Below, in pieces: positions 34,552 through 56,147 of a stretch of DNA of 64,000 nt. The stretch is from Ottowia thiooxydans DSM 14619. GTDB taxonomy: Bacteria > Pseudomonadota > Gammaproteobacteria > Burkholderiales > Burkholderiaceae_C. The translations under genes and the position numbers were made by a program. Position 1 is the first letter of the stretch, and every line of letters begins with the position of its first letter. The stretch lies in assembly GCF_000422885.1 (NCBI RefSeq), contig NZ_AUGX01000013.1, forward strand, positions 1-64,000, read 5' to 3'. The notes under the pieces are model-generated. The model did not search any database. It was not told the origin of the DNA and saw nothing but the letters and a program-made list of their open reading frames with translations.

Positions 34552-35358
34552 CTAGTCGTCCTGAATCAAATGATTCGAGTCCATCTGCATGGCCAGGCGC
34601 TGTGTGATGAGCAAGGAGTCCTTGCGCAAAGACTCCGCGATCTCATCCGCTCTTTGGGCGAAGCTCGGGTTGTCGATATTCACAACAGAAAGTGATGCGA
34701 ACGGGACGCCCTCAGGGTCTTGAATAGGCACCGCGACCGACACCAGGCCTCGCGCCACGTTGCCATCGTTGAAGCCATAGCCGAGCTTGCGAGAGCGCTG
34801 CACCATTCTTCGGCGTTCAAGGGCGTTGACCCGTTTCTGCTGTGCGAGTTGCTTGAAGTAGGCCTTGACGATGGCGTCGGCTTCCACTTCAGGTAGCTGT
34901 GAAAGCACGGCAAGCCCGGCTGCCAGCGCCGGCATAGGGCGTCGCGTGCCGGGTTGCCCCCATGCACTATGAATGAGCACGTGGTCGGATCGGGCGATGC
35001 ACACGACATCTGTGCCGCTGCGAAGGTAAACAAAGCTTGCGCCCTTGAAGCGCCGGGCCACCCGCTCCATAGGCTGGCGGCACGCCTCCTGCAACGAACG
35101 GTATGCGGGCACGGTGAGCCCAAGTTCAAACAGTCCTTGGCCCGGCAAGTAGCGCTTGTCGGAAGCCCTCTGCTCCACCACGTGCTCGCGTACCAGGCAG
35201 GCCAGTACGCGGCAGGTGGTGCCCATGTCCATGCCGCAGCGCTCCGCGATGTCAGTCAAGCGCGCACCAAACTGATGGTGCGCTGCAACATCACGGATGA
35301 CAGCCAGGGCACGTTCGATGCTTTGCGTACCGGAGCGTCTGGGTTCAGTGGTGGGCAT
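34552..35358 (-). CDS. IclR-family regulator of module A
   Basis: A 268-residue IclR protein. The N-terminal wHTH is at about residues 12-80 (SIERALAVIRDVAAHHQFGA; LTDIAERCGMDMGTTCRVLA), and the effector domain follows (GYGFNDGNVARGLVSVAVPI). ATG 35358 is chosen over an upstream GTG. It is divergent from the acyl-CoA synthetase that leads the large plus-strand operon, with a striking nested palindrome between them. It is the likely regulator of module A, sensing its substrate or CoA ester. Confidence 0.9.
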   Translation of the reverse strand: MPTTEPRRSGTQSIERALAVIRDVAAHHQFGARLTDIAERCGMDMGTTCRVLACLVREHVVEQRASDKRYLPGQGLFELGLTVPAYRSLQEACRQPMERVARRFKGASFVYLRSGTDVVCIARSDHVLIHSAWGQPGTRRPMPALAAGLAVLSQLPEVEADAIVKAYFKQLAQQKRVNALERRRMVQRSRKLGYGFNDGNVARGLVSVAVPIQDPEGVPFASLSVVNIDNPSFAQRADEIAESLRKDSLLITQRLAMQMDSNHLIQDD

Positions 35359-35421
35359 GTGAGTCTTGAAGAAGAAATGACCCCGCACTTGCTGGGGGTA
35401 GCTCCGGGGTCTTGAGAAAAA

Positions 35422-35568: not shown

Positions 35569-37782
35569 ATGCTGGAGACATTCCTAAATCCCAGGAGTAT
35601 TGCCGTGATTGGTGCGTCGCAAGACGTCTCCAAAATACGCGGACGGATGCTGCGCATCCTGATCGAAAGCGGCTATGACGGTGTCTTGCTTCCGGTCAAT
35701 CCGTCGCACGCCACGGTGCAGGGTTTGCCTGCATATCCAAGCATTTCAGCGTTACCGCAGCGCGCGGATATGGCGCTGATTGCCACCCCGGCAGAGGCCG
35801 TGTGTGATGTGCTGCGCGAATGCGCTGGTGCTGGGATCATGAACGCGGTGGTCTTCACAGCTGGTGCAGCGCATGGCACTGAAGCGGAACGGCAACTGGT
35901 CTCCCGTATGTCCGCGGTAGCCCTGGAAACCGGTATGCGCGTGCTGGGGCCAAACTGTGAAGGCTTCTTTAATGTGCGCGACAACGTCGCGGGAAACTTC
36001 AGCCCGTCCATTCACCTTGCAGCGCCGCTGCACATACAAGGCGGACTGCAACGGCCCATCAGCATCGTCTCGCAAAGTGGTGCTGTCGGATTTGGGCTCT
36101 TTACTCAGTTGAAGCAGCAAGGCCTGATCTGCCGGCATCTGGTCACCACAGGCAACGAAGCTGACCTGGAGTGCCTGGATTTTGTGGAGCACATCGTCAG
36201 GGAGGGTGGCAGCGGTCCTATCCTTTTGTTCGTCGAAGGGTTGAAAGATGGCCAGCGCTTTGCCCGGGTGGCGAAGCTGGCTGCCGACCATGAAGTGCCT
36301 CTGGTGTTCTGCAAAGTCGGCAACTCGATTGCCGGAGCCAGGGCGGCGGCTTCACACACTGCCCACCTCACTGGGGCCATGACCGCGTATGAGGCTACCT
36401 TTAGACGTTACGGTGTCGTGAGCGCGCTGGATTCAGATCAGGCGTTGACGGCAACCAGGGTGTTGGCTTGCCTGTCCCCGGCGCGTGGAAACCGGGTTGC
36501 CGTGCTGTCTACTTCGGGCGGAACGGGCGTGTGGCTGGCGGACGCCTGTTCCGCCATGGGGTTGGAATTTCCGGTGCCAGATGAGGCGCTGCACGCTCGC
36601 CTTGCGAAAGTGATTCCCGCCATTGGTGGCATTGCGAATCCGGTGGACATGAGCGCGAGCGTGATTGAAGGCCAGGGCGAGGTGCTGGCAGAAGCACTGC
36701 GCGTGATGACTGAGGCCAACTACATGGATGCGGTGGTCATTGCGATGTCTCTGGCTGCGAAGGATCGCATCAAGCAGATGCAGCCTGCGCTTGAGCCATT
36801 TCTCGCATCTACATCGCTTCCAGTCATCATTCATTCCCAGGCCTACGCGACCCAGGATAACCTGGATGCGCTGTCCCGGATGGGGGGCTTGGCCTTGGGT
36901 ATGCGCGACACCGCCTTTGCGCTCAAGACCTTGAGTGACTATGGGGCATTTCGGCGGACGTGGAGCTCGCAGAAAGCGTGCATTGAATCGGTTGCCAGTG
37001 CGCCCCTCGTGTCGGAGCAGGCATGCCGGGAAATGCTGGACCAAGGCAAGCAGGCACAACTGCTTCGCGCCTATGGCATTGCCTTACCCCCTGAGGCCGT
37101 GGTGGCATCCAAGAAAGAGGCACTTCTTGCCGCGCACGGTATGGGTTACCCCGTGGCGCTCAAGATCGTGTCCGCTCAGGTTCAGCACAAAACGGAGGTA
37201 GGCGGCCTGGCTCTGGATGTGCGCAGTGATGAGGATCTGGAAAGCGCCTATGAGCAGGTACTGACCAACGTCGCACGTGCTGCTCCGCAGGCACGCATTG
37301 AGGGCATGCAGATCCAGAAGATGATGCCGCCCGGGTTGGAGATGGTCTTGGGCATCACCCGGGATCCAGATTTCGGGCATCTGCTCATGGTGGGACTGGG
37401 CGGCGTGTTCGTTGAGCTGCTTCGTGATGTGGCGTTCTCGCCCGTACCCGTCTCGCCGGACCAGGCCGAGGATTTGATTCGCTCGCTCAAAGGTTTTTCG
37501 CTCCTGGAGGGCTGGCGCGGTGGGGAGCCTGGCGATGTGCGGGCCCTCGCGCTGTTGGCCAGCGGCCTGGCGCGTCTCGCAGCTGAGCATCCAGACGCTA
37601 TTGAAGAAATCGATCTCAACCCGGTGCTGGTTTACGCAAGCAGTGTGTGCGCAGTGGACTACCTGGTGATCCCGCACCGTAACGCCTTAGCCGTTCGCCC
37701 TGAGCCTGTCGAAGGGCTTAAGCAGATTCAGCCGGAACGGACCCCAGATCTCATTGACTGCTCATCCAAGAAAGAACATTGA
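35569..37782 (+). CDS. ADP-forming acyl-CoA synthetase of module A
   Basis: A 737-residue NDP-forming acyl-CoA ligase of the same fused architecture as the copy at 2601-4751. It has a CoA-binding domain (FLNPRSIAVIGASQDVSKIR at the start), SQSGAVGFGLFTQL, the phospho-His region ASHTAHLTGAMTAYE, and a C-terminal ATP-grasp domain (GYPVALKI; HKTEVGGLALDV). It should activate the organic acid degraded by module A. The last 30 or so residues are anomalous: VRPEPVEGL is the translation of a dispersed repeat, so the native C-terminus was probably altered. Its TGA overlaps the next ATG by one base. It is the first gene of a 13-kb co-directional run. Confidence 0.92.
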   Translation: MLETFLNPRSIAVIGASQDVSKIRGRMLRILIESGYDGVLLPVNPSHATVQGLPAYPSISALPQRADMALIATPAEAVCDVLRECAGAGIMNAVVFTAGAAHGTEAERQLVSRMSAVALETGMRVLGPNCEGFFNVRDNVAGNFSPSIHLAAPLHIQGGLQRPISIVSQSGAVGFGLFTQLKQQGLICRHLVTTGNEADLECLDFVEHIVREGGSGPILLFVEGLKDGQRFARVAKLAADHEVPLVFCKVGNSIAGARAAASHTAHLTGAMTAYEATFRRYGVVSALDSDQALTATRVLACLSPARGNRVAVLSTSGGTGVWLADACSAMGLEFPVPDEALHARLAKVIPAIGGIANPVDMSASVIEGQGEVLAEALRVMTEANYMDAVVIAMSLAAKDRIKQMQPALEPFLASTSLPVIIHSQAYATQDNLDALSRMGGLALGMRDTAFALKTLSDYGAFRRTWSSQKACIESVASAPLVSEQACREMLDQGKQAQLLRAYGIALPPEAVVASKKEALLAAHGMGYPVALKIVSAQVQHKTEVGGLALDVRSDEDLESAYEQVLTNVARAAPQARIEGMQIQKMMPPGLEMVLGITRDPDFGHLLMVGLGGVFVELLRDVAFSPVPVSPDQAEDLIRSLKGFSLLEGWRGGEPGDVRALALLASGLARLAAEHPDAIEEIDLNPVLVYASSVCAVDYLVIPHRNALAVRPEPVEGLKQIQPERTPDLIDCSSKKEH
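37691..37718 (+). repeat. Dispersed GAGCCTGTCGAAGGG-type repeat inside a CDS end
   Basis: CCGTTCGCCCTGAGCCTGTC followed by GAAGGGCTT is the widespread proteobacterial repeat often seen between genes. Here it is translated as VRPEPVEGL at the tail of the acyl-CoA synthetase. Confidence 0.7.
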
Positions 37783-38183
37783 TGAACCCGACTTCTCCTT
37801 CATCGCCTGTCAGGTCGCCAGATCTGGACTACGAGCAGTTTCTGCGCGAGGGCCGCTTCATGATCCAGCGCAGCGCCAGCAGTGGTGCGTATGTGTTCTA
37901 TCCCCGCATTGCAGAACCTGTGACGGGGGCTATGGATCTCGAATGGGTCAACGCCTCAGGCAATGGCACGGTCTACTCCGCCACGGTGATCCGCCCTCGC
38001 GCTCCGGCGCAGCCTTACAACGTTTGCCTGATTGATCTGGAAGAGGGGCCTCGGATGATGTCGCGTGTGGACGGCATGGCCGCCGATGCGGTACAGATAG
38101 GCATGCGCGTGACGGCACGCATTGTGCAAGAGGGTGATAAGCCCCTAGTTGTGTTCTTTCCGATGGAAGGGAGCTCGGTATGA
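37782..38183 (+). CDS. DUF35 OB-fold protein lacking zinc-ribbon cysteines
   Basis: A 133-residue DUF35 (ChsH2-C-like) protein. The OB-fold half is clear: GTVYSATVIRPRAPAQPYNV and PRMMSRVDGMAADAVQIGM. The N-terminal rubredoxin-like zinc ribbon normally has CxxC pairs; here the first pair is replaced by serine (IQRSASSGAYVFYPR) and only one Cys remains in the whole protein, so zinc binding there is unlikely. DUF35 proteins partner thiolase-fold enzymes, notably Ltp2-type aldolases. The next gene is exactly such a protein and overlaps by 4 bases. The ATG overlaps the preceding stop. Confidence 0.88.
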   Translation: MNPTSPSSPVRSPDLDYEQFLREGRFMIQRSASSGAYVFYPRIAEPVTGAMDLEWVNASGNGTVYSATVIRPRAPAQPYNVCLIDLEEGPRMMSRVDGMAADAVQIGMRVTARIVQEGDKPLVVFFPMEGSSV

Positions 38184-39331
38184 GCAAATTTCCAAGAGGC
38201 AAGACAGCCGTAGTGGGCGCCGCGACCTATGGTCTCGGTGAAGCGCCCGGATTCACAGCGTTGGAGCTTGCCGCCGGGGCGAGCTTGGCCGCTCTGGACG
38301 ATGCAGGCCTGGCTTTGAAGGATGTCGATGGCCTGTTCGTCGCGCTCCCGGAAGATCAATTTTCGGGGTTGAGCCTGTCAGAATATTTCGGTATCCACCC
38401 TGCCATCACAGACAACAACCGTGTGGGCGGCTCGTCGTTTCAAACCCACGCCATCGTGGCCGCCCTGGCACTGGAGGCTGGTCTATGCAATGTGGCACTG
38501 ATCGCCTACGGAAGCAACCAGCGCAGCGCCGCAGGCAGGCTGGTCACACCGACTCGGCCTTTCCCATATGAAGGCCCGTACAAGCCGACTTATCCGATAT
38601 CAGCCTACGCGCTGTCGGCTGCACGACACATGTACCAGTACGGAACGACCCGCCGTCAGTTTGCCGAGGTGGCCGTAGCTGCACGTGCCTGGGCGCAACT
38701 CAACCCCGAGGCATTCGCGCGTGATCCACTCACCATTGATGAAGTGCTGGCCTCGCGCATGGTGTCCGACCCTTTGAGCGTGCGTGATTGCTGCCTGGTG
38801 ACTGATGGCGCCTCTGCCGTCGTGATGACGCGTGCCGACCGTGCGCGCCACACGACGCATGCACCCGTGCACCTGCTGGGAGGAGCTGCAGCCACCACAC
38901 ACCGAAACATCATGGCCATGGATGACCTGACCGTGACAGGCGCGGCAGATTCTGGGCGCCGGGCTTTCGAGTATGCCGGCCTCCAACCAGCGGATGTCGA
39001 TGTACTCCAGCTCTATGACGCTTTCACGATCAACCCCATTCTCTTTCTGGAAGACCTGGGGTTTTGCAAGAAAGGCGAAGGCGGAGCGTTCGTGGAGGGC
39101 GGGCGCATAGCGCCGGGCGGTGCGTTGCCGGTGAACACCAATGGCGGTGGGCTCTCGTGCACGCACCCCGGGATGTATGGCCTTTTCACCATGGTTGAAG
39201 CGGTGCGCCAATTGCGTGGTGATACCGGCGCACGTCAGGTCCAGGGAGCCAAGGTCGCACTTGCACATGGGAATGGGGGCACTTTGTCGAGCCAGGCCAC
39301 GCTGATCTTCGGTACAGAAGAAACGCTTTAA
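38180..39331 (+). CDS. Thiolase-fold lipid-transfer-type protein (Ltp2-like, possible aldolase)
   Basis: A 383-residue thiolase-superfamily protein of the SCP-x/Ltp group. The canonical nucleophilic Cys region is VGGSSFQTHAIVAA, without Cys, so classical thiolysis is doubtful. The C-terminal half keeps QLYDAFTINPILFLEDLGFC and NTNGGGLSCTHPGMYG. In steroid side-chain catabolism, Ltp2 lacks the thiolase cysteine and cleaves by retro-aldol with a DUF35 partner. The upstream DUF35 gene overlaps this start by 4 bases, supporting a complex. I infer carbon-carbon cleavage of a hydroxyacyl-CoA; the family is certain, the reaction is not. Confidence 0.87.
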   Translation: MSKFPRGKTAVVGAATYGLGEAPGFTALELAAGASLAALDDAGLALKDVDGLFVALPEDQFSGLSLSEYFGIHPAITDNNRVGGSSFQTHAIVAALALEAGLCNVALIAYGSNQRSAAGRLVTPTRPFPYEGPYKPTYPISAYALSAARHMYQYGTTRRQFAEVAVAARAWAQLNPEAFARDPLTIDEVLASRMVSDPLSVRDCCLVTDGASAVVMTRADRARHTTHAPVHLLGGAAATTHRNIMAMDDLTVTGAADSGRRAFEYAGLQPADVDVLQLYDAFTINPILFLEDLGFCKKGEGGAFVEGGRIAPGGALPVNTNGGGLSCTHPGMYGLFTMVEAVRQLRGDTGARQVQGAKVALAHGNGGTLSSQATLIFGTEETL

Positions 39332-39340
39332 GGAGTCGCC

Positions 39341-40198
39341 ATGCCCACGACTTACGAAAAACTGAAAGCGCTCCGTGTGGACGACATGAGCTTCTCGTAC
39401 CGACCCAAGGACGTGATGCTGTATGCGCTGAGCGTCGGCATGGGTCGCGATCCGCTGGATAGGCAGGAGTTGAAATACGTCTTTGAGAAGGAACCGCTAA
39501 AGGTCGTACCCTCGCTAGCGTGTGTGGTCTCACGCACCAATCTGCTGCTGAATGCGGGTCTGGATCGTACCAAGATCGTCCATGGTGAGCAGGTCCTGAA
39601 GCTATTCCGCCCTTTACCTCCGGCGGCGGATCTCCTGGCGTCGTCTCGCGTGAGTGCTGTGCATGACAAGGGTGAGGGCAAGGGCGTTCTGATCTATGTG
39701 GATACAGAGGTCAGGGATGCTGCCACGGGCGAACCGTTGTATGCGCTACGACAAGGGACCTTCGCGCGTGGTGATGGCGGTATGGGCGGAGATCTCGGAC
39801 CCGCACCGCATCCTCATGTCATGCCCACCCGCAAGCCGGACCTCGTAGCGGCTTCCGATACGCGTGCGGATCAGGCTTTGCTGTACCGGCTTAACGGCGA
39901 TATGAACCCGCTGCATGCCGACCCTGAATTGGCTGCGCGCGTGGGGTTCAAGGCGCCAATCCTGCATGGCTTGTGCACCTATGGAGTGGCTTGCCGGGAG
40001 ATTTTGGCTCAGGTTTGTGAGTACGACCAGACGGCCATTGAAGAGTTCAACGTTCGCTTCACCTCACCGGTCTACCCCGGAGAGCGCATCACGACCCAGG
40101 CGTGGATCGATGGCGATGTGGTGTCTTTCCGCTGCAGCGTAGAGGCGCGTGACAAGGTGGTTCTGGACAACGGTATGTGCCGTGTTCGAAGGGCCTGA
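39341..40198 (+). CDS. MaoC-type (R)-specific enoyl-CoA hydratase
   Basis: A 285-residue double hot-dog protein. The C-terminal half carries the hydratase-2 motif YRLNGDMNPLHADPE at about residues 181-196 with the catalytic Asp and His, followed by GFKAPILHGLCTYG. The N-terminal half is a degenerate hot-dog (MLYALSVGMGRDPLDRQELK). This is the layout of 2-enoyl-CoA hydratase 2. It follows the Ltp-like gene after 9 bases. It would hydrate the enoyl-CoA made by the dehydrogenase pair downstream, giving a hydroxyacyl-CoA for the Ltp/DUF35 pair. Confidence 0.9.
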   Translation: MPTTYEKLKALRVDDMSFSYRPKDVMLYALSVGMGRDPLDRQELKYVFEKEPLKVVPSLACVVSRTNLLLNAGLDRTKIVHGEQVLKLFRPLPPAADLLASSRVSAVHDKGEGKGVLIYVDTEVRDAATGEPLYALRQGTFARGDGGMGGDLGPAPHPHVMPTRKPDLVAASDTRADQALLYRLNGDMNPLHADPELAARVGFKAPILHGLCTYGVACREILAQVCEYDQTAIEEFNVRFTSPVYPGERITTQAWIDGDVVSFRCSVEARDKVVLDNGMCRVRRA

Positions 40199-40257
40199 CG
40201 AGGCGACTTTTTCTCACACCGTAGATGACTAAAAACCCAGGAAAAGGAGACAAGAAC

Positions 40258-41226
40258 ATGAAGACTCAACTGCGAATCTTGCTATGCGCGGCGCTGGCCT
40301 TGACGGGCTACGTCTCAGCCTATGCCCAAGCCACAGGCTACCCCAACAAGACCATCAAGATCGTCTCGCCTTACGCGCCAGGGGGCTCCACGGATCTGCT
40401 CACACGCGCCGCTGCGGAACTGGTGGGAAAGAAACTTGGGCAGGCGATGATCATCGAGAGCCGGCCTGGAGCAGGCACCCTGATTGCCACGCGGGGTGTG
40501 AAAGCCGCAGAGGCTGACGGCTACACGCTTTTGCTGCAGTCCAACGGGTTCGTCAGCAACCTGCATGCCTTCAAGGAACCGGGCTACGCCATGGCTGACT
40601 TCAAGCCGGTGGCGGTACTGGGGAAATCTTCTTATGTGCTCATGATTTCGACCAAGGGGCCGGCACGCGACATCAAGGAGTTCGTTGAGTACGCGAAAGG
40701 CCGCAACGATCTCTCCTATGGCACTTTGGGGCGTGGCGGGCGAACCCACATCCTGGCGGAAGAATTTGCGACGCGAGCTGGCTTCAAGTGGCAGGACATT
40801 CCTTACAAGGGCGGGGCTGACGGAGTGAACGCCGTGCTGGGCCGCCACATTGATGGGTATTTTGCGTCGGTGGCATTGGCCCACCCACACGCGCAGTCTT
40901 CGAACCTGAGATTGATTGGAATCGCCAGCGAAGTCCGCTCGGAATTCCTGCCTGCCGTGCCCACCTTCAAGGAAGCGGGCATTCCGCAGATGACGGATGA
41001 CCTCTGGATCGCCTTGTTCGCGCGCTCCGATATTCCCCAACCCATTCTCGACACGCTGCGCACGGCTTTCCGGGAAGTCAGTGCTTCGGAGGAGATGAAG
41101 GTGGTGCGTCAGCGCATCCAGATGTCGACTTACACGGCAAGCCTTGCCGAGTTCGAAACCAGTATGAATGCTGCGCTTGTGCAGACCATTCAGGAATTCA
41201 AGCAACACAAGCTTCCACAGCAGTGA
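40258..41226 (+). CDS. Bug/TctC-family receptor, module A (first copy)
   Basis: A 322-residue Bug receptor with Sec signal (MKTQLRILLCAALALTGYVS, cleavage near AYAQ). The core motifs YPNKTIKIVSPYAPGGSTD and ESRPGAGTLIATRG follow. AAGGAGA 10 bases before ATG 40258 fixes the start; an upstream in-frame ATG is disregarded. It sits inside the acyl-CoA operon between MaoC and an SDR, implying uptake or sensing of the same substrate. No membrane TctAB partner is present. Confidence 0.93.
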   Translation: MKTQLRILLCAALALTGYVSAYAQATGYPNKTIKIVSPYAPGGSTDLLTRAAAELVGKKLGQAMIIESRPGAGTLIATRGVKAAEADGYTLLLQSNGFVSNLHAFKEPGYAMADFKPVAVLGKSSYVLMISTKGPARDIKEFVEYAKGRNDLSYGTLGRGGRTHILAEEFATRAGFKWQDIPYKGGADGVNAVLGRHIDGYFASVALAHPHAQSSNLRLIGIASEVRSEFLPAVPTFKEAGIPQMTDDLWIALFARSDIPQPILDTLRTAFREVSASEEMKVVRQRIQMSTYTASLAEFETSMNAALVQTIQEFKQHKLPQQ

Positions 41227-41255
41227 AGCTGTACCCGCTCAAAGGAGAAAGAACT

Positions 41256-42203
41256 ATGAAGCTAAAAGGAAAATCTGCCATCGTGACCGGTGGTGGGCGA
41301 GGTATCGGTCGCGCCATTGCGCTTGAACTGGCTCGTCAGGGCGCTGCGGTGGTCGTCAATGACCCAGGTCTGGGCCGCAGTGGCGAGCTCACCACGGAGA
41401 GGCCCGCAGATGAAGTGGTGGCTGAAATCGTTCAGGCGGGTGGGCGCGCGGTGGCCAACCATGAATCTGTCTCGGATCATCAAAAGGCCGGGCAGATGGT
41501 GCAGCAGTGCATAGACAGTTTCGGCAGTATCGACATTCTCATCAACTCTGCCGGTGTGGTGCGAGAACGCATGATCTGGAATATGACCGAGGATGAGTTC
41601 GACACGGTCATCGGTGTGCACCTCAAGGGCATGTGGAACATGTCTCACCACGCCATTCGCTACATGCGGACGCAGGGGTTCGGGCGCATTGTCAGTTTGT
41701 CCTCAGACGCGTTCAAAGGAACCTTCGGGCAGTGCAACTACGCTGCGGCCAAAGCCGGCATCATTGGCCTGACGCGTTCCATAGCCAAGGAAACAGCCAA
41801 GTTTGGAATCACCGCCAACGCGCTGTGCCCGGTGGCCGACACCCGCATGACCGCCACGCCTGAGGTGGCGGCCAACCGCAAACGCAAGCTCGAAAGTGGG
41901 TTGATCACCCAGGCACAGTACGACGCCGCGATGCAGGCCAAAGGGCCGGAATACGTGGCTCCTTTGGCAGCCTACCTCTGCCTGGAGGACGCAGACTTCA
42001 TAAACGGACAGACATTCCATGTGGAGAAGGGCGTTATCAATACCTATTACTTTGGCGAAGATCGCAATTCGATGTTCAAAGTGGGTGACGGTTTGTTCAC
42101 ACTGGAGGAGCTGGAAGAGTGCCTGCCCCGCGCCCTGCTGAATGGCGTTCCCCCCATCGCTCCGGTCGTCAAGCGTGAACAAGCGCAGAAAGCTGGCGCA
42201 TGA
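41256..42203 (+). CDS. Short-chain dehydrogenase/reductase, 3-hydroxyacyl-CoA type
   Basis: A 315-residue SDR. The NAD motif TGGGRGIG is at about residues 10-17, the NSAGV segment near 95 and the active-site YAAAK near 161-165. The N-terminus (LARQGAAVVVNDPGLGRSGE) and longer C-terminal tail match the multifunctional-enzyme-2/(3R)-hydroxyacyl-CoA dehydrogenase group rather than simple FabG. AAAGGAGAAAGA precedes ATG 41256. Its stop overlaps the next start by 4 bases. It pairs logically with a MaoC hydratase, whose (R)-hydroxy product it would oxidise. Confidence 0.88.
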   Translation: MKLKGKSAIVTGGGRGIGRAIALELARQGAAVVVNDPGLGRSGELTTERPADEVVAEIVQAGGRAVANHESVSDHQKAGQMVQQCIDSFGSIDILINSAGVVRERMIWNMTEDEFDTVIGVHLKGMWNMSHHAIRYMRTQGFGRIVSLSSDAFKGTFGQCNYAAAKAGIIGLTRSIAKETAKFGITANALCPVADTRMTATPEVAANRKRKLESGLITQAQYDAAMQAKGPEYVAPLAAYLCLEDADFINGQTFHVEKGVINTYYFGEDRNSMFKVGDGLFTLEELEECLPRALLNGVPPIAPVVKREQAQKAGA

Positions 42204-43375
42204 CTGCAGATCTGCGCGAGTTCCGGGATGAAGTGCGGGCCTTCATCCGCGCGAGCTTGTCGGAGGAGCTGCGCGAACGTGTGATGCGTGGCTATTCACA
42301 GCTGGAAAAGGCTGACTATGTCTTTTGGCAGAGGTGCTTGTATGAACGCGGCTGGGGTGCGCCAAGTTGGCCCATGGAGCATGGCGGCGCTGGCTGGACT
42401 GCCGCACATCGCCAGATTTTTGACGATGAGTGCGCGCGCTTGGGTGCACCGCGCACACAGCCCCAGATGGTGAAAATGATTGGCCCTATCCTCTGTGCGC
42501 ACGGCACACCGGAGCAGCAGGCGCGCTTTCTTCCTCCAATTCTGAAAGGCGACGAGTGGTGGTGTCAGGGCTATTCCGAGCCTGGCGCAGGCTCCGATCT
42601 GGCGGCGATCTCCACCCGCGCTGAACGTGACGGCGATCATTACGTGGTCACCGGCCAGAAAGTCTGGACTTCCTTCGCGCATTTTTCTGACTGGATGTTC
42701 TGCCTGGTGCGCACGGAGGTCGCAGCGCGCAAGCAGGAGGGCATCACCTTCTTGCTCATCGATATGCGTTCGCCCGGCGTAGAAGTTCGCCCTATCCATA
42801 CGTTGGACCTGGCGCATCACACCAACGAAGTATTCCTGAACGAAGTACGGGTGCCGGTGGAAAACCGCATTGGAGAAGAAGGCCGGGGATGGACTTATGC
42901 CAAGGCCTTGCTCGCGCACGAACGCAGCGGTATTGCTGAGCTTGGACGGGCGCGAGAGCGGTTTGAACGCATACACCGCATCGTCGCAGACCCAGCGATC
43001 GCCGGAGCGAGGCTGCGGGGCGACGCGGAGTTCATGTCGCAGCTTGCCCAACTGGAAGTGGAGATCATGGCAGCTGAAGCCACCACGCTCAGGCTTCAGG
43101 AAAGCCATGCTGCACCGGCGCTCTCGTCCGTGCTGAAACTGCGGGGCTCCGAGATCACGCAGCGGCTCACGCGTCTGGCGGTGGAGGCGCTCGGGCCTCA
43201 TGCCTTGCACTTCGATATCGAAGAAGCAAGCAGAGGTCCGCATGAAGACGATCCCCTGCCTTCCTACGCCACGGGCCGTGTTCCTGAGTACATGGTGTTC
43301 CGCTCTCTCACCATCGCCGGCGGCTCCAGTGAAATCCAACGCAACATCATCGCCAAGCTGGCCTTTGGTGATTGA
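42200..43375 (+). CDS. Acyl-CoA dehydrogenase, large-type subunit
   Basis: A 391-residue acyl-CoA dehydrogenase. The FAD/substrate motifs WCQGYSEPGAGSDLAAIST and VTGQKVWTSFAHFSDWMFCL are present. At the end the usual YEG(T)SE catalytic-Glu segment reads TIAGGSSEIQRNII, so the standard base position is Gly. This form is known from the large subunit of two-gene dehydrogenases such as PimC or FadE28/29-type heterotetramers. It overlaps the SDR by 4 bases and is followed by a small-type partner after 16 bases. Together they likely form one enzyme. Confidence 0.92.
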   Translation: MTADLREFRDEVRAFIRASLSEELRERVMRGYSQLEKADYVFWQRCLYERGWGAPSWPMEHGGAGWTAAHRQIFDDECARLGAPRTQPQMVKMIGPILCAHGTPEQQARFLPPILKGDEWWCQGYSEPGAGSDLAAISTRAERDGDHYVVTGQKVWTSFAHFSDWMFCLVRTEVAARKQEGITFLLIDMRSPGVEVRPIHTLDLAHHTNEVFLNEVRVPVENRIGEEGRGWTYAKALLAHERSGIAELGRARERFERIHRIVADPAIAGARLRGDAEFMSQLAQLEVEIMAAEATTLRLQESHAAPALSSVLKLRGSEITQRLTRLAVEALGPHALHFDIEEASRGPHEDDPLPSYATGRVPEYMVFRSLTIAGGSSEIQRNIIAKLAFGD

Positions 43376-43391
43376 AGCAAGGCGCCCTGCG

Positions 43392-44522
43392 ATGCAATTT
43401 ACCTTGACAGATGAGCAGCAACAGCTGCGTAACGCCGCCACGCGTTTTGTGCGCGATCGCTATACCTTCAGCGCCTGGCGCCGGTGCGCAAGGCAGCTAA
43501 ATGGCTTTGATGCCGAAACCTGGCGACAGATGGCCAGCATGGGCTGGACGGCCGTGGCAGTGCCCGAAGCCTATGGTGGCTTGGGGCTGGGCCCGGATGC
43601 GCAAGCGATCATCATGGAATCCTTCGGAGAGGGCCTGGTGCTGGAGCCCTATTGGAGCAGTGCCGTGGTGTGCGCTCAAACGCTGAGCCTGGCTGGAACG
43701 CCAACGCAGAAGTCGTTGTGGCTTCCGCGTATCGCGGATGGCTCGGTTCGCGGTGCGTTCGCACTGCTGGAACAAGGCACACGCTATGACTGGTCCGCTT
43801 TGGCTTGCGAGGCCCGCAAGAAGGACGAAGCCTGGGTGCTGAACGGACAGAAGCTGGCCGTGCTCGACGCACCGCATGCAGATCACCTGGTGGTGGTGGC
43901 TCGCACTGGCGGAAAACCTGGCGATGCCGCGGGTTTGTCGTTGTTCTGGGTTCACTCCGATGCGCCTGGCCTCAAGCGCCGCGACTTCCGAACCGTGGAT
44001 GAGCGCCGCGCCAGTGACATGGTTCTGGACGGTGTGAAGGCCGAACTGATAGGCATTGAGGGCGCCGCAGCTGGTGTGGTGGAGCAGACCATAGACCATG
44101 GAATTGCCGCACTGTGCGCCGAGGCGGTGGGTGTGATGTCCAGCGCCGTAGAGGCCACGGTGCAATACCTCAAAACCCGCCAGCAGTTCGGCCGTCCGCT
44201 AGCGCAGTTCCAGGTGTTGCGCCACCGGGTGGCGGACATGGTGATGGCGCTGGAGCAGTCTCGCTCTCTGGCGATGCTTTGCGCGTTCTCCTTGAATGAC
44301 TCGCCCGCTCGACGCATGCGCGTGGCAGCGGCTGCCAAAGCTCAGATTGGGTCGGCGGGCCGCTTCATAGGCGAAAGCGCTGTGCAATTGCATGGCGGCA
44401 TAGGCGTGACGGATGAGCTGCAGATTGGCCATTTCATGAAACGCCTGTTGGCCATTGACATCCTGCTTGGCGACACGCGCCATCACCTCTCACGGATGGC
44501 GCAACGTGAAGCCATGGCCTGA
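43392..44522 (+). CDS. Acyl-CoA dehydrogenase, small-type subunit
   Basis: A 376-residue acyl-CoA dehydrogenase-like protein; ATG 43392 is used because the open frame upstream overlaps the previous gene by 176 bases. Its motifs are weaker than in the partner: TRQQFGRPLAQFQVLRHRVA and ESAVQLHGGIGVTDELQIGH are clear, but the SEPGxGSD substrate loop is replaced by FALLEQGTRYDWSAL. This matches PimD/FadE29-type subunits. Heteromer formation with 42200-43375 is inferred from adjacency and complementary motif loss. Confidence 0.9.
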   Translation: MQFTLTDEQQQLRNAATRFVRDRYTFSAWRRCARQLNGFDAETWRQMASMGWTAVAVPEAYGGLGLGPDAQAIIMESFGEGLVLEPYWSSAVVCAQTLSLAGTPTQKSLWLPRIADGSVRGAFALLEQGTRYDWSALACEARKKDEAWVLNGQKLAVLDAPHADHLVVVARTGGKPGDAAGLSLFWVHSDAPGLKRRDFRTVDERRASDMVLDGVKAELIGIEGAAAGVVEQTIDHGIAALCAEAVGVMSSAVEATVQYLKTRQQFGRPLAQFQVLRHRVADMVMALEQSRSLAMLCAFSLNDSPARRMRVAAAAKAQIGSAGRFIGESAVQLHGGIGVTDELQIGHFMKRLLAIDILLGDTRHHLSRMAQREAMA

Positions 44523-44573
44523 CGGGCTACGCCATAGAGATCACTTCAGCCACAGATGACTCCAGGAGTACTG

Positions 44574-45362
44574 ATGAACGATTCCCCTCTTCACGTTCGC
44601 ATCGAAGGCAGCGTGGCGATTCTGACTCTGTCGGCACCAGAGCGCCGCAATGCCATATCCACGGACATGCGCCACGAGTTGCTCGCACAGCTCAGGCTAC
44701 TGGGTGATAACGACCAGGTTCATGCGCTGGTGCTCACGGGTGCCGGGGGGCATTTTTGCTCGGGTGGCGATGTGAGCCAGATGGCTGCTCCTGGTCAACC
44801 GCGTGACATCGTGGGAGGCGGGCGCCGTCTGGCGATCCTGCACGATTGCATTCGCTTGTTGGTGGGTGGGCCTAAACCAGTGGTGGCAGCGGTGGAAGGC
44901 GTCGCCTTTGGGGCCGGCATGTCGTTTGCGATGGCTTGCGACTGGGTGGTGGCTGCGGAAGATGCCAGGTTTGGCGCTGCGTTCGGTAAGGTGGGCCTGA
45001 TGCCTGACTGCGGCTTGCTCTGGACCTTGCCGCGCCGGGTGGGCGAAGCTGCCGCCCGTGATGTGTTGCTCACGGCGCGCGTGCTGGACGCTTCGCAAGC
45101 GAAGACGCTCGGCATGGTGAACGAGCTTGTGTCCCCTGGCCAGGCACTTGCCGCTGCACTGAAAAAATGTGCCGAATACGCCGTGGTGGCTCCGCGCTCA
45201 GCGGCTGCGGTCAAGGCGGTGCTGGCGCGTGCGCCAGATTCCTTGAACGACCTTTTGCAAATGGAAGCCGACCTGCAGCAGAGCCTGAGGCAAAGCGTAG
45301 ACCATGAGGAAGGCCGAAAAGCCTTCACGGAAAAACGAGCGCCCGTGTTCATTGGACGTTGA
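44574..45362 (+). CDS. Crotonase-family enzyme, isomerase-like active site
   Basis: A 262-residue crotonase. Oxyanion-hole segments GHFCSGGDVSQ and EGVAFGAGM are present. The first hydratase Glu position is Phe (FGAAFGKVGLMPD) and the second is Asp (AAARDVLLTA), unlike true hydratases, and similar to PaaG-type isomerases. So isomerisation or another crotonase reaction is more likely than hydration. CAGGAG precedes ATG 44574. It follows the dehydrogenase pair and precedes the nitronate monooxygenase gene by 12 bases. Confidence 0.87.
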   Translation: MNDSPLHVRIEGSVAILTLSAPERRNAISTDMRHELLAQLRLLGDNDQVHALVLTGAGGHFCSGGDVSQMAAPGQPRDIVGGGRRLAILHDCIRLLVGGPKPVVAAVEGVAFGAGMSFAMACDWVVAAEDARFGAAFGKVGLMPDCGLLWTLPRRVGEAAARDVLLTARVLDASQAKTLGMVNELVSPGQALAAALKKCAEYAVVAPRSAAAVKAVLARAPDSLNDLLQMEADLQQSLRQSVDHEEGRKAFTEKRAPVFIGR

Positions 45363-45374
45363 GGACTACACGCC

Positions 45375-46346
45375 ATGGCACTTGATCCTCGACTACGCGC
45401 GCGGCTGGTGTTGCCAGCGTTTTGCGCGCCCATGTACCTGGTGAGTGGAAGGCCGTTGCTGGCGGCAGCTTGTAAAGCCGGGATCATTGCGGGAACCAAT
45501 CCGCGCAATTGGCCCAGCGTGCAGGCGTTCGAACAAGACATGCTGGCATTGCGGCGTGAACTGGATGAGTTTCAGGCTGAGCACCCTGAGGCACGCCTGG
45601 GGCCGCTCGCCACCAATCTGAACCTTCGGGCCAGCGGTGAGGAGATGGCCCATTACCTTCGTATTTGCAAAGCCGCGCGCGTGGATATCGTGGTATCCGT
45701 GCGGGGTGACCCTACCCGCCTGATCGAGCAAGTGCATGAGCACGGCGGCGTGGTGTGGCACGACGCCACCTCTTTGAGATTTGCTGAGAAAGCCATCCGC
45801 GCCGGAGCTGACGGCATCATCGCCATTGCGGCGGGTGGGGGCGGTCACTCCGGGCAAGTCACTCCGCTCACATTGATTCCCCAGATCCGGGCCATGTTCG
45901 AAGGCACCATCGTGATGGCTGGCGCCGTTTCCAACGGCGCCGCCATTCGCGCGGCTGAAGTTCTGGGTGCTGATCTCGCCTACCTGGGAACACGCTTTAT
46001 CGCCACGCAGGAATCAGATGCGCCTGATGACTACAAGCGCATGCTGGTGGATTCCGGCATTTCAGATCTCGCCTACACACCGGCCGTCAATGGTGTGCCC
46101 GCGAACTGGCTATTGCCTTCACTGCGCAGCCATGGAATTGACCCGGCTATGCAGAGGCCAGCGCAGCCCGGAGCGGACCACTTGCCCCCTGAGGTGCGTC
46201 CCTGGAAAAACGTGTGGAGTGCCGGGCAGGGTGTGGGGCTGATCAAAGACATCCCCACGGTATCCGAGCTAGTGCGGCGCTTGCGCCGCGAATACGTGCA
46301 AGCCTGCGCTATGCCCAGCATGGCGCAGGCAGCTTCCCTCGTATAG
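45375..46346 (+). CDS. Nitronate monooxygenase-family FMN enzyme
   Basis: A 323-residue TIM-barrel FMN protein of the nitronate monooxygenase/2-nitropropane dioxygenase family. FMN-binding parts are visible: FCAPMYLVSGRPLLAAACKA at the N-terminus, AIAAGGGGHSGQVTPLTLIP in the middle and GAVSNGAAIRAAEVLGADLA with LGTRFIAT later. Such enzymes oxidise nitronates, but relatives reduce enoyl compounds or isomerise double bonds, and several sit in acyl-CoA operons without nitro substrates. Here it lies between a crotonase and a Bug gene, so a flavin role in acyl-CoA metabolism is plausible. Confidence 0.87.
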   Translation: MALDPRLRARLVLPAFCAPMYLVSGRPLLAAACKAGIIAGTNPRNWPSVQAFEQDMLALRRELDEFQAEHPEARLGPLATNLNLRASGEEMAHYLRICKAARVDIVVSVRGDPTRLIEQVHEHGGVVWHDATSLRFAEKAIRAGADGIIAIAAGGGGHSGQVTPLTLIPQIRAMFEGTIVMAGAVSNGAAIRAAEVLGADLAYLGTRFIATQESDAPDDYKRMLVDSGISDLAYTPAVNGVPANWLLPSLRSHGIDPAMQRPAQPGADHLPPEVRPWKNVWSAGQGVGLIKDIPTVSELVRRLRREYVQACAMPSMAQAASLV

Positions 46347-46368
46347 ATTTTCACTGAAGGAGACAAAC

Positions 46369-47379
46369 ATGAAGAATTCCTTGAACCATTCACGCGGCCT
46401 AGGCCGCATGCTGAAAGGCGTGCTCACCGGCCTGCTGCTGGGCTCGGCAGCGCTGGCCTCGATCAGCGCAACTGCCCAGCAGGCCTGGCCTACCAAGCCC
46501 GTCAGGGTGATTCTTCCATTCGGGCCGGGGAGCGCCACCGACATCGTGGCGCGCGCGGTGGCTGAGGAGTTTCGCTCTGAACTGGGCCAGCCTTTCATCG
46601 TGGACAACCGCGCCGGTGCCAACGGTTTCATCGCTGCAGAAGCCGTCGCCCGAGCGCCCGCCGACGGCTACACCTTATTCATCACATCGAACACCACACA
46701 GACCAATAACCAGTTTCTATTCAAGAAACTGCCCTACGACCCTGTGAAAGATTTCGTACCTATCGGCCCCATCAACGAGCAGTACTACGTGCTCGCGGTG
46801 CCTCAAAGCATGCCCGTGAACAATGTTGCCGAGTTCGTGGCCTGGCTCAAAGCGAACCCGGACAAGGCCAGTTATGGCTGGGGCGCCGCTGTGGCACAGA
46901 TTGCGGGGGCCACCTTCCTGAAAGAAGTGGGGGCCACGGCCACTGGTGTTCCCTACAAGAGCAGCCCTCAGGTCACCACCGACCTGATTGGCGGACAGCT
47001 CAGCTTTACGGTGCAGGGCGTGACCTCCGGCTTGCAAGTCTTGAAGAGCGGCCGCCTGAAGGCACTCATGGTGAGCTCGCCGGAACGGGTTCCACAATTG
47101 CCTGATGTGCCTACCGGCGCGGAAGCCGGTGTCCCAGGGTTTCGGGCATCGGCATTCATCGGGGTGTTCGCGCCTACGGGGACACCAGAACACATCGTTA
47201 AGCTGCTCAACGCCACGCTCATAAAGGCCTTGCGCAAGCCGGAGATGATTGCGCGAATTGACGCCTGCTGTGCCGGGCGGTTCATTCATTCTTCCCCCGC
47301 AGAGTTTGCCGAATACCTGCGCAAGGATCGCGAACGTTGGTCTACCAGTATCAACGCTGTGGGCATCAAGCCCGAGTAA
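46369..47379 (+). CDS. Bug/TctC-family receptor, module A (second copy)
   Basis: A 336-residue Bug protein with signal peptide ending near ISATAQ, then WPTKPVRVILPFGPGSATDI and DNRAGANGFIAAEA. GAAGGAGA precedes ATG 46369. It is the second Bug receptor in the same operon, only 5 kb from the first, and the two are clearly different proteins, which suggests two related ligands or an uptake/sensor split. A CoA-transferase gene follows after 32 bases. Confidence 0.93.
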   Translation: MKNSLNHSRGLGRMLKGVLTGLLLGSAALASISATAQQAWPTKPVRVILPFGPGSATDIVARAVAEEFRSELGQPFIVDNRAGANGFIAAEAVARAPADGYTLFITSNTTQTNNQFLFKKLPYDPVKDFVPIGPINEQYYVLAVPQSMPVNNVAEFVAWLKANPDKASYGWGAAVAQIAGATFLKEVGATATGVPYKSSPQVTTDLIGGQLSFTVQGVTSGLQVLKSGRLKALMVSSPERVPQLPDVPTGAEAGVPGFRASAFIGVFAPTGTPEHIVKLLNATLIKALRKPEMIARIDACCAGRFIHSSPAEFAEYLRKDRERWSTSINAVGIKPE

Positions 47380-47411
47380 GCCACTTTCCCTTCAAGATTC
47401 TTTGTATCCGC

Positions 47412-48620
47412 ATGACTTTGCCAATGTCTTCCAGTCCCCTGCCGCTTGCGGGTATCAAGGTGGCCGATTTCTCGCAGGGCGTTGCTGGCCCTCACGCGTC
47501 GTTTCTGCTTGCTAACCAGGGGGCAGAGGTGATCAAGATCGAGCCCCCGGAAGGTGACTGGGGGCGCAATCTCGGCAAGCGGTTCGGAAATTTCAGTGCG
47601 TTTTCGGTCTACTACAACCGGGGCAAAAGATCGCTTGCGCTGGATCTCAAGCAGGCCAGGGCACGCGAGATTGCCTTTGAGATCGCGGCCACGGCAGATG
47701 TGGTGGTGGAGTCTTTTCGCCCAGGTGTGATGGCACGCCTGGGCCTGGACCCGGCCAAGCTGTTTGAGCGAAACCCCAAGCTGGTGTATCTGGCCGTGAC
47801 AGGTTTTGGCCAGAGTGGCCCGAACGCGGATCTTCCTGCTACGGATGCGATCATTCAAGGCTATTCCGGCCTCATGTCGCTGAATAGAGATGCCCAGGGT
47901 GTGCCGCAGCGGTTTCCCATGATCCTGATTGACGTGGTGTCTGGAATCTATGGCGCGCAGGCGATCATGGCGGCCTTGCTCAGAATGTTCCGTTTTGGAA
48001 AAGGCCAATACATAGACTGCAATCTGATGCAGTGCGCCACGGCCCTTCAAGCTCCGCGCTTGCTGGAATTCCATCTGGAAGGGGGCAACCCGGAGATCAT
48101 GTATGTACCCCTGGGTGTGTATGCCACCAAGGATTCATTTCTGAGCCTGTCCGTCAACCGGGACGCGCATTTTGCGATCTTCTTCGAAGTCCTTGGCCGG
48201 CCTGATATTGCGCATGACCCTCGCTACGTGGCGCGTGCCGATCGTGTGCGCCATGCCGACGCGATCAATGCCGTTGTGCGCGAAAAGCTCTTGGAGCGCA
48301 CCTCTGAAGAATGGAGCGTCCTGCTGAGCCAGGCCGGCATACTCCACGCGAAGATACGCTCCTATAGTGACCTCTTGAGTGACCCAGAGAGTGTGAAGGC
48401 CGGTCATCTGACCTGGTTGAACCACCCGGATCTGCCCAGCCCCGTGCCTGTACCCAATGTGCCGGGGGCGTTTCCCGCTGAAGCGTTTGGGGCGCTTTCG
48501 AGCTGTCCTGAGGTGGGCCAGCATACCGAAGACGTGCTGGCCGAACAGGGGTTGTCAGCCCAGGACATTCAGACCGCTATTGCCGAGGGTGTGGCTTGTA
48601 CACGCAGACGCCAAACTTGA
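47412..48620 (+). CDS. Class III CoA-transferase (CaiB/BaiF family), module A
   Basis: A 402-residue class III CoA-transferase. GVAGPHASFLLANQGAEVIK at the N-terminus and the catalytic Asp in LPATDAIIQGYSGLM are present, with GPN before it as in Frc/CaiB. It moves CoA between carboxylic acids, so it may activate the growth substrate from an intermediate such as succinyl-CoA. ATG 47412 is used; ATG 47424 is also possible. It is the last gene of module A, before a strong hairpin at 48642. Confidence 0.92.
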   Translation: MTLPMSSSPLPLAGIKVADFSQGVAGPHASFLLANQGAEVIKIEPPEGDWGRNLGKRFGNFSAFSVYYNRGKRSLALDLKQARAREIAFEIAATADVVVESFRPGVMARLGLDPAKLFERNPKLVYLAVTGFGQSGPNADLPATDAIIQGYSGLMSLNRDAQGVPQRFPMILIDVVSGIYGAQAIMAALLRMFRFGKGQYIDCNLMQCATALQAPRLLEFHLEGGNPEIMYVPLGVYATKDSFLSLSVNRDAHFAIFFEVLGRPDIAHDPRYVARADRVRHADAINAVVREKLLERTSEEWSVLLSQAGILHAKIRSYSDLLSDPESVKAGHLTWLNHPDLPSPVPVPNVPGAFPAEAFGALSSCPEVGQHTEDVLAEQGLSAQDIQTAIAEGVACTRRRQT

Positions 48621-51184: not shown

Positions 51185-51239
51185 TTTTTGTTCCCATGTG
51201 CCGGTCTGCGCCGGCCAGATGTTGTGAATGAAAGAGTGA

Positions 51240-51695
51240 TCAGTTGGAAGCGGACAGCCGTGGAAGTTGGTTTTGCTCCTGCTCAGGCGGTACGGGTTGG
51301 TCTTCTAGTAATTCAAAGATCGCCAATGGTTGTTCGGCATCCTCAGTTGCCTTGAAACGGACTTTCGCGCCGATGTGCAACTGCGAATGAGGCGCGACAA
51401 TGTTGGTGATGAGTTGCGGGCCTTCTTGCAGTTTCACGATGGCCACGTTGTAGGGCAGGCGATCCTTGAATTCGGGGTGGTATGCCACGTGATACACCAC
51501 CCAGCTCTTGATGACACCGTTGCCACAGGCGTCTTTCCACTGCCATGCGTGGCCAAGGCAAGCCGGACAGAGTGCTCGTGCAGGTAGCCAGGTATGACCA
51601 CACGAACACGCCTGGAACTTCAAGCACCCTTCGCGTAGGCCAGTCCAATAAGGCTCGTTTTGCGCGTCGATGTCTATGACGATGGAGCTTGTCAT
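51240..51695 (-). CDS. DUF35 OB-fold protein with intact zinc ribbon
   Basis: A 151-residue DUF35 protein. Unlike its module A counterpart it keeps all four zinc-ribbon cysteines: CSCG and CPAC separated by HTWLPARAL (about residues 30-46). The OB-fold follows (GVIKSWVVYHVAYHPEFKDR, LPYNVAIVKLQEGPQLITN). Its start ATG lies one base before the stop of the thiolase-like gene, so coupled translation and complex formation with that protein are likely. The C-terminus is Gln/Pro-rich. Confidence 0.92.
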   Translation of the reverse strand: MTSSIVIDIDAQNEPYWTGLREGCLKFQACSCGHTWLPARALCPACLGHAWQWKDACGNGVIKSWVVYHVAYHPEFKDRLPYNVAIVKLQEGPQLITNIVAPHSQLHIGAKVRFKATEDAEQPLAIFELLEDQPVPPEQEQNQLPRLSASN

Positions 51696-51696
51696 G

Positions 51697-52818: not shown

Positions 52819-52834
52819 AGGAGGTTCTCCGCTA

Positions 52835-53611: not shown

Positions 53612-53623
53612 GGAGACTTTCCT

Positions 53624-54790: not shown

Positions 54791-54858
54791 AGGAATTCCC
54801 AGAGGTGTGTAGGAGAAGAGGATTGAAGGGCGGTGTGATCAGGAAGTGTCAACACGCC

Positions 54859-56073: not shown

Positions 56074-56147
56074 AGAGAGGAATTGCGCTGAGACAACGGG
56101 GAACCGGCGTTGGCTCAAAGGCCAGAAACCACATTCAATTTGAGTAG

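What the first reader, a model, noticed from the sequence alone, without database searches (positions are those of the whole stretch)
35569..48620. Module A resembles a steroid side-chain (igr-like) cleavage set in a betaproteobacterium
One co-directional run contains a paired acyl-CoA dehydrogenase, a MaoC hydratase, a DUF35 protein and a thiolase-fold Ltp-like protein, the four parts of the actinobacterial FadE28/29-ChsH-Ltp2 retro-aldol system. Here they are combined with two Bug receptors, an ADP-forming ligase, a CoA-transferase, an SDR and a nitronate monooxygenase. Family calls are seen in sequence; the retro-aldol pathway is inferred and the substrate unknown.
Basis: partly seen in the sequence, partly recalled or inferred. 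Interest (0 to 1): 0.72.

Follow-up and report, generated by a model that had tools for sequence, protein, structure and literature searches.

The report
Cysteine-less thiolase-fold cleavage operon
A bacterial operon for breaking down an unknown carboxylic acid carries a "thiolase" that has lost the cysteine thiolases need and belongs to a widespread, unstudied group related to steroid side-chain aldolases, so it probably cuts carbon-carbon bonds in their way but not on steroids.

Summary
In detail: 12 tightly packed co-directional genes (35569-48620; gaps -4 to +33) include an acyl-CoA dehydrogenase pair, MaoC hydratase, DUF35 protein and thiolase-fold protein (LTP). A crotonase was missed. 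The igr/steroid reading fails: LTP is not Ltp2 (NCBIfam PRK06158 662 bits, cut-off 421; PRK07855, where a true Ltp2 scores 665, only 231, cut-off 469); the hydratase is of MFE-2 type, not the ChsH1/ChsH2 MaoC-DUF35 arrangement; a KshA-like Rieske gene and such a fusion were searched for in the genome and not found. The retro-aldol half survives. LTP has Gly84 where thiolases carry the nucleophilic Cys, and the aldolase Tyr (YDAF). In a 74-row tree Cys/His thiolases are one branch (100/100), and LTP lies in its own (100/97) apart from Ltp2 and Sal. Its signature, Gly84 / Y279-D-A-F / His329, holds in all 106 distinct homologues of at least 55% identity: a third variant beside Ltp2 and Sal. The DUF35 partner keeps its fold but has lost all four zinc cysteines (38 of 87 distinct partners have 0 or 1). 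Around these genes acyl-CoA dehydrogenases and hydratases are enriched and FadA-type thiolases are not. Substrate unknown; retro-aldol cleavage inferred, not shown.

The parts
34552..35388 (-). IclR-family regulator, divergent from the operon
   Evidence: Pfam IclR_C 41.4 bits, HTH_IclR 33 bits; kept in the same-genus relative L039, 91%
35569..37782 (+). ADP-forming acyl-CoA ligase (CoA-binding, Succ_CoA_lig, ATP-grasp_5)
   Evidence: below the cut-off of each of the 7 NCBIfam models listed
37779..38183 (+). Stand-alone DUF35 (OB-fold) partner; all four zinc Cys lost (likely start ATG 37782)
   Evidence: PF01796 67.5 bits; 0 of 4 Cys; model pLDDT 90.8, best folds 6ok1 and 9myr DUF35
38180..39331 (+). 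LTP: Cys-less thiolase-fold protein, putative CoA-thioester aldolase; Gly84 / Y279-D-A-F / His329
39341..40198 (+). MFE-2-type double hot-dog (R)-hydratase
   Evidence: MFE-2_hydrat-2_N 78 bits; best solved relatives ECH2 7mku 174 bits and MFE-2 1s9c 160 bits; GDxNPLHxDP and PILHGLC motifs kept
40225..41226 (+). TctC/Bug periplasmic receptor 1
   Evidence: PF03401 178 bits
41223..42203 (+). MFE-2-like SDR, (3R)-hydroxyacyl-CoA dehydrogenase type (YAAAK in the sequence)
   Evidence: best solved relative 2et6, (3R)-hydroxyacyl-CoA dehydrogenase, 286 bits
42200..43375 (+). Acyl-CoA dehydrogenase, large subunit, with catalytic-type Glu
   Evidence: pimC model 375 bits (cut-off 624); 4x28_A 181 bits, HER motif aligned
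43392..44522 (+). Acyl-CoA dehydrogenase, small subunit, without that Glu
   Evidence: pimD model 316 bits (cut-off 653); Tcur3481 (6wy8_A) 148 bits
44556..45362 (+).
   Evidence: ECH_1 187.5 bits
45375..46346 (+). FMN protein of the NMO / FabK / NADH:quinone reductase superfamily
   Evidence: PF03060 79 bits; best solved relatives FabK-type 89 bits, PA1024 56 bits
46369..47379 (+). TctC/Bug periplasmic receptor 2
   Evidence: PF03401 183.5 bits
47412..48620 (+). Family III (CaiB) CoA-transferase
   Evidence: PF02515 351 bits; start ATG 47412 chosen

Best explanation
The operon takes up a carboxylic acid (two Bug receptors), loads it with CoA (ADP-forming ligase or CaiB transferase), makes it alpha,beta-unsaturated with a two-subunit acyl-CoA dehydrogenase and hydrates it (MFE-2-type MaoC or crotonase). 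The thiolase-fold protein LTP, held by its DUF35 partner (which lacks the zinc ligands), then splits the beta-hydroxyacyl-CoA in a retro-aldol step. Tyr279 would take the proton from the beta-hydroxyl as in Ltp2 and Sal; His329 (or the adjacent conserved Cys327) would give a proton back to the acyl-CoA enolate. The product would be acetyl- or propionyl-CoA plus a ketone, since aldehyde dehydrogenases are not enriched nearby. This suits acids whose beta-carbon becomes a tertiary alcohol that cannot be oxidised (beta-branched or alicyclic), not steroids. Shown: gene content, loss of the nucleophile, clade, invariant residues, predicted folds, gene neighbourhood. Inferred: reaction, catalytic roles, substrate class, complex formation, absence of zinc.
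Against: No activity is known to me for any member of this clade. The thiolase-type His is kept (His329), whereas both proven aldolases have replaced it (Tyr344, Gln352), and the acid of Sal (Cys in YDCY) or oxyanion His of Ltp2 (YDHF) is Ala here. An MFE-2-like SDR, which would make a 3-ketoacyl-CoA, is in the operon and such SDRs are enriched in relatives' loci (38/49 vs 2/20); it is not needed before a retro-aldol step. Bug receptors are hardly more frequent near LTP than elsewhere (23/49 vs 9/20). The set around the pair varies: MFE-2-type MaoC in 9/49, ADP-forming ligase in 8/49.
Confidence: 0.6

Rival explanations
1. Retro-Claisen enzyme without a cysteine: the SDR makes a 3-ketoacyl-CoA, and LTP uses His329 to activate water (or CoA directly) to cut it, giving a free acid or acyl-CoA plus acetyl-CoA.
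For: His329, at the place of the thiolase His that activates the nucleophile (role recalled), is invariant here (106 of 106) but lost in proven aldolases; MFE-2-like SDR in the operon and SDRs in 38/49 loci.
Against: The Tyr that marks proven aldolases (YDHF, YDCY) is present and goes with loss of Cys throughout the tree alignment; the clade falls outside all Cys/His rows.
Confidence: 0.17
2. A true igr-type steroid side-chain cleavage set.
For: Same four protein classes; both dehydrogenases match 4x28 or Tcur3481/3483 best in the PDB, which are steroid dehydrogenases (recalled).
Against: LTP outside the Ltp2 clade and model; MFE-2-type hydratase and stand-alone DUF35; no KshA-like gene or MaoC-DUF35 fusion found in the genome; its dehydrogenases score higher on pimC/pimD (375/316 bits) than the four beside Vibrio Ltp2 do (none, 194 and 258 on pimC, 224 on pimD).
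Confidence: 0.05
3. Ordinary Cys-dependent thiolase that uses another Cys (Cys327/328 next to His329) as nucleophile.
For: A Cys at 327 or 328 in 105 of 106 distinct clade members.
Against: The position shifts between 327 and 328, is absent in the neighbouring 4u4e, and lies at the GHP-type His, not on the nucleophile loop; Tyr replaces the thiolase His of HDxF.
Confidence: 0.06
4. LTP-DUF35 is an acyltransferase, decarboxylase or carbon-carbon forming enzyme, and C-C cleavage in the pathway is done by a thiolase encoded elsewhere.
For: DUF35-thiolase complexes also occur in acyltransferases (PhlABC, MucABC); the genome has 21 Thiolase_C_1 matches, some with Cys.
Against: Those acyltransferases keep a nucleophilic Cys (recalled; one search lists CsATase C88S as a mutant); the operon is catabolic in make-up.
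Confidence: 0.12

Closest known systems
Ltp2-ChsH2(DUF35) aldolase (igr; TcLtp2, PDB 6ok1; TA441 ORF43/ORF40)
   Same: Thiolase fold without nucleophilic Cys, Tyr of YDxF, DUF35 partner, beside an acyl-CoA dehydrogenase pair and a MaoC hydratase
   Different: LTP 32% identical, other NCBIfam subfamily and clade; YDAF + His instead of YDHF + Tyr; DUF35 stand-alone and without zinc Cys; hydratase MFE-2 type; KshA-like gene not found
Sal-Shy(DUF35) aldolase of Comamonas testosteroni (PDB 9myr)
   Same: Gly at the Cys position, Tyr base, DUF35 partner, highest structural Z (52.7; close to tied)
   Different: 38% identical over the printed stretches; YDCY + Gln; separate clade (98/90); Shy fused to MaoC with a C3H1 zinc site (PMC12329534)
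4u4e, putative thiolase of Sphaerobacter thermophilus
   Same: Closest solved sequence (368 bits; 49% identity), G / YDSF / THPGMYG
   Different: Ser instead of Ala in YDxF, neighbouring branch, no Cys at 327/328; one search for 4U4E with thiolase found no paper
IpfD/IpfE-type pair (ibuprofen-CoA cleavage, pIBU218)
   Same: Thiolase-fold plus stand-alone OB-fold pair beside CaiB and crotonase genes, non-steroid substrate
   Different: In the Ltp2 branch (YDHF/Tyr); acts after a ring dioxygenase (PMC9195938 passage), and no KshA-kind Rieske gene was seen in the 80 loci
BbsAB benzoylsuccinyl-CoA thiolase (7pxp)
   Same: Thiolase plus stand-alone DUF35 in an acyl-CoA catabolic cluster (cluster recalled)
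   Different: HDAF motif, groups with Cys/His thiolases (partial sequence on a long branch)
Peroxisomal MFE-2 (D-bifunctional protein)
   Same: SDR and hydratase match its dehydrogenase and hydratase 2 parts best or near best
   Different: Two separate genes here, with a Bug gene between

Membership tests
igr system (ChsE1E2-ChsH1H2-Ltp2) | Ltp2 subfamily member (PRK07855) with YDHF + Tyr344 | tested here: not met
   231 bits vs cut-off 469; Ltp2 of V. alfacsensis 665; YDAF + His; outside clade
igr system (ChsE1E2-ChsH1H2-Ltp2) | ChsH2 = MaoC-DUF35 fusion plus small MaoC ChsH1 | tested here: not met
   stand-alone 134-aa DUF35 and 285-aa MFE-2-type hydratase; Vibrio ChsH2 is a fusion (dehydratase domain 14-155, zinc ribbon, OB fold), and all 13 of its own-genome matches begin at residue 183 or later
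igr system (ChsE1E2-ChsH1H2-Ltp2) | acyl-CoA dehydrogenase pair with one catalytic Glu | tested here: met
   by sequence only, alignments; assembly not tested; pimC/pimD-type pairs are alike
igr system (ChsE1E2-ChsH1H2-Ltp2) | steroid ring catabolism in the same genome | tested here: not met
   two genes tried. Vibrio Rieske protein taken as KshA from its place (no NCBIfam label): best 36% over 128 of 363 residues, 62 bits, against 51-54% over 98% in sphingomonad records. KstD-like: best own match (L174, 35%) scores best on PRK06134 (730, cut-off 747), not on 3-oxosteroid dehydrogenase models (436 of 788, 456 of 789). Other ring genes not tested
igr system (ChsE1E2-ChsH1H2-Ltp2) | cleavage of 17-hydroxy steroid side-chain CoA | not testable with these tools
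   needs enzyme assay
Sal aldolases | YDCY motif, Gln at the His position, Sal clade | tested here: not met
Cys-dependent thiolases (SCP2, BbsB, 7yvy type) | nucleophilic Cys with HDxF motif | tested here: not met
   Gly84, YDAF; outside the 100/100 Cys/His branch
NCBIfam NF004811 / PRK06158 (named acetyl-CoA acetyltransferase) | score above the curated cut-off | tested here: met
   661.7 bits vs 421
DUF35 (PF01796) | score above the gathering cut-off | tested here: met
   67.5 bits vs 27.1
DUF35 (PF01796) | zinc ribbon with four Cys ligands | tested here: not met
   0 of 4 Cys
MFE-2 hydratase 2 | MFE-2 N-domain plus MaoC domain with hydratase motif | tested here: met
   PF22622 78 bits, PF01575 89.5 bits; motifs aligned
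Pimeloyl-CoA dehydrogenase PimC/PimD | score above equivalog cut-offs | tested here: not met
   375 of 624 and 316 of 653 bits

The most novel reading that the evidence does not exclude
The G/YDAF/His clade is a third, unrecognised catalytic type of thiolase-fold aldolase with a Tyr-His pair. It is spread through Proteobacteria under the name 'thiolase' or 'acetyl-CoA acetyltransferase', often works with a zinc-free DUF35, and opens a carbon-carbon-cleaving branch of beta-oxidation for beta-branched or alicyclic (non-steroid) acids.
Probability: 0.45. Interest if true: 0.65.

Novelty: new variant of a known kind. Interest (0 to 1): 0.5.

Why it matters
A large group of proteins named thiolase or acetyl-CoA acetyltransferase in public records lacks the residue that usual thiolase chemistry needs. 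If they are aldolases, many catabolic operons in Burkholderiales, Pseudomonas and roseobacters would have to be read anew, and bacteria would have a general route round beta-branched carbons without a carboxylase. The invariant Tyr and His and a DUF35 that seems to dispense with zinc make the mechanism directly testable, and such aldolases are of interest as biocatalysts.

Tried and rejected
Rejected: igr membership; Cys thiolase; pimelate operon as such (both dehydrogenases far below the equivalog cut-offs). Kept open: Cys327/328 as catalytic acid.

Limits: enrichment used blastp with window, Vibrio and plasmid proteins at 50% query coverage, 49 of the 80 named loci (31 shorter than 19 kb set aside; over all 80: dehydrogenase 52, hydratase 53, CoA activation 52, SDR 54, FadA 8), and controls from one genome while the cases come from many. 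Tree: 74 rows chosen by me; BbsB and CtSal rows partial; midpoint root; long branches among the Cys rows; order of the Ltp2, Sal and YDAF groups not resolved (56/93). DUF35 neighbours: 112 of 133 loci had one by my distance rule, repeated fetches included; 87 distinct after collapsing.
Full report
WHAT IS THERE. The window lies on contig C9 of a 7.05 Mb genome. Relatives of the same order include a named betaproteobacterial MAG: G070:C76 and the contig of L068 agree in length and in the place of the match. Between 35569 and 48620 twelve + strand genes follow each other with gaps of -4 to +33 bases. A same-genus genome keeps the order of the module (L039); 17 of 100 relatives have an LTP match at E <= 1e-80.

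THE FOUR KEY PROTEINS. (a) Dehydrogenases: nearest solved relatives are 4x28_A (181 bits) and Tcur3483 (155) for the large subunit and Tcur3481 (148) for the small one; that these are two-subunit steroid dehydrogenases is recalled. The large subunit keeps the Glu of the HER motif, the small one does not. On NCBIfam both score best on pimC/pimD, below cut-off (375 of 624, 316 of 653), and higher than the four dehydrogenases beside the Ltp2 of Vibrio alfacsensis do (one without a match, 194 and 258 on pimC, 224 on pimD). (b) MaoC: the best solved relatives are peroxisomal hydratase 2 and MFE-2; the SDR of the operon matches (3R)-hydroxyacyl-CoA dehydrogenase 2et6 best (286 bits), with MFE-2 dehydrogenases also high in the list. 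Together they look like a split MFE-2. (c) DUF35: 134 residues, stand-alone. (d) LTP: 383 residues.

LTP IS NOT A CYS THIOLASE. Aligned to solved sequences, it has Gly84 at the position of the thiolase nucleophile; CtSal too has a Gly at the Cys position (PMC12329534, abstract and passages). The five Cys of LTP are at 103, 204, 205, 296 and 327. The HDxF motif is YDAF. In 74 aligned rows, 65 have Gly with Tyr, 8 Cys with His, and one partial row (BbsB) His with the other position missing. The maximum-likelihood tree puts the nine His rows on one branch (100/100), Ltp2-type YDHF/Tyr on one (100/99), Sal-type YDCY/Gln on one (98/90) and all 36 YDAF/His rows, LTP among them, on one (100/97). Nearest outside that group are one YDHF/His row and the YDSF/His rows with 4u4e. 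How the Ltp2, Sal and YDAF groups join is not resolved (56/93).

THE DUF35 PARTNER. Its model (pLDDT 90.8) matches best the DUF35 domains of 6ok1 and 9myr. All four zinc Cys are gone. Among 87 distinct DUF35 neighbours of clade members, 49 keep four and 38 have none or one (27 and 11); on a tree of the LTPs this needs four changes, at least two forced by supported branches. In Sal-Shy the zinc finger shapes the substrate cleft (PMC12329534, abstract), so zinc loss may go with another substrate; inferred.

NEIGHBOURHOOD. Around 80 named relatives (the best of 590 in a capped list) DUF35 is found in 66 loci, the other genes vary. In the 49 loci of at least 19 kb, against 20 control stretches of the own genome chosen before looking: dehydrogenase 37/49 vs 2/20, hydratase 37/49 vs 3/20, CoA activation 37/49 vs 5/20, SDR 38/49 vs 2/20, Bug 23/49 vs 9/20, FadA-type thiolase 4/49 vs 2/20, aldehyde dehydrogenase 3/49 vs 3/20, Rieske oxygenase of the KshA kind 0/49 vs 0/20, MFE-2-type MaoC 9/49 and ADP-forming ligase 8/49, both vs 0/20. 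So steps up to a beta-hydroxyacyl-CoA often come with LTP and a Cys thiolase usually does not. The SDR tells against the simplest retro-aldol reading, and the Bugs say little. 28 of 108 loci, some fetched twice, hold at least seven of ten module families; Pseudomonas nitroreducens L076 holds nine, a P. aeruginosa plasmid stretch (L142) eight.

NOT STEROID. Vibrio alfacsensis plasmid genes served as yardstick; the label KshA for its Rieske protein is mine, from its place (NCBIfam gave none). Best own-genome match 36% over a third (62 bits), while sphingomonad records give 51-54% over 98%. ChsH2 of that plasmid is a dehydratase-zinc ribbon-OB fusion; its 13 own-genome matches all begin at residue 183 or later, none reaching the dehydratase half. 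The one KstD-like protein (35%) scores best on PRK06134 (730, cut-off 747), then on other FAD models, among them 4-oxocyclohex-2-ene-1-carboxylate 5-dehydrogenase (563 of 900), and lower on 3-oxosteroid dehydrogenases (436 and 456). The betaproteobacterial igr set is known (TA441 ORF40-44, PMC12502768, abstract and passages), its Ltp2 61-64% identical to that of M. tuberculosis; LTP is 32% identical to TcLtp2. Other steroid genes were not tried.

MECHANISM AND RIVALS. I favour retro-aldol cleavage of a beta-hydroxyacyl-CoA (0.6). The main rival is cysteine-free retro-Claisen cleavage of a ketoacyl-CoA (0.17), favoured by the kept His and the SDR. The gene of the ibuprofen plasmid that I take as IpfD lies in the Ltp2 branch (PMC9195938 passages), so such pairs probably serve non-steroid acids too. 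Substrate class (beta-branched or alicyclic) is a guess from reaction logic and pim-like dehydrogenases.

NOVELTY. Ten paper searches in the held open library listed no paper on this clade; the CtSal paper mentions neither a YDA nor a YDS motif, nor 4U4E, in its main text. Subscription papers are mostly not in that library.

Noticed in passing
window 50204-56160 (-): A second module side by side: Bug, DUF35 (51240-51695), another Cys-less thiolase-fold protein with G/YDCF and no His (51697-53034, longest ORF), crotonase, acyl-CoA dehydrogenase, CaiB, with an IclR at 56355-57203 (+).
   Followed up: partly
whole genome G000: 21 Thiolase_C_1 and 16 DUF35 matches in one 7 Mb genome, five of the YDAF clade (window, C7, C66, C58, C4): many copies.
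   Followed up: partly
window 45375-46346: The 'nitronate monooxygenase' is closer to FabK-type enoyl reductases (89 bits) than to PA1024 (56 bits), which is now an NADH:quinone oxidoreductase (PMC10033279, passages); such genes recur in 17 of 80 loci.
   Followed up: partly
G000:C5:90392-92074 (L174): KstD-like flavoprotein of the PRK06134 kind (730 bits, just under the cut-off 747), also like a 4-oxocyclohex-2-ene-1-carboxylate dehydrogenase (563 of 900): perhaps alicyclic rather than steroid chemistry.
   Followed up: partly
L084: A MAG named Verrucomicrobiaceae carries a 64% LTP relative nested among proteobacterial ones: transfer or a wrongly binned contig.
   Followed up: no
L154 (G000:C4:368200-371800): Thiolase-fold protein with YDDY/Gln on a very long branch beside Sal, with a DUF35 match in a 490-residue open frame nearby.
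   Followed up: no
L141 and L143: Carboxyl transferase genes near YDAF-clade pairs on two plasmids, a possible hint of beta-methyl substrates.
   Followed up: no
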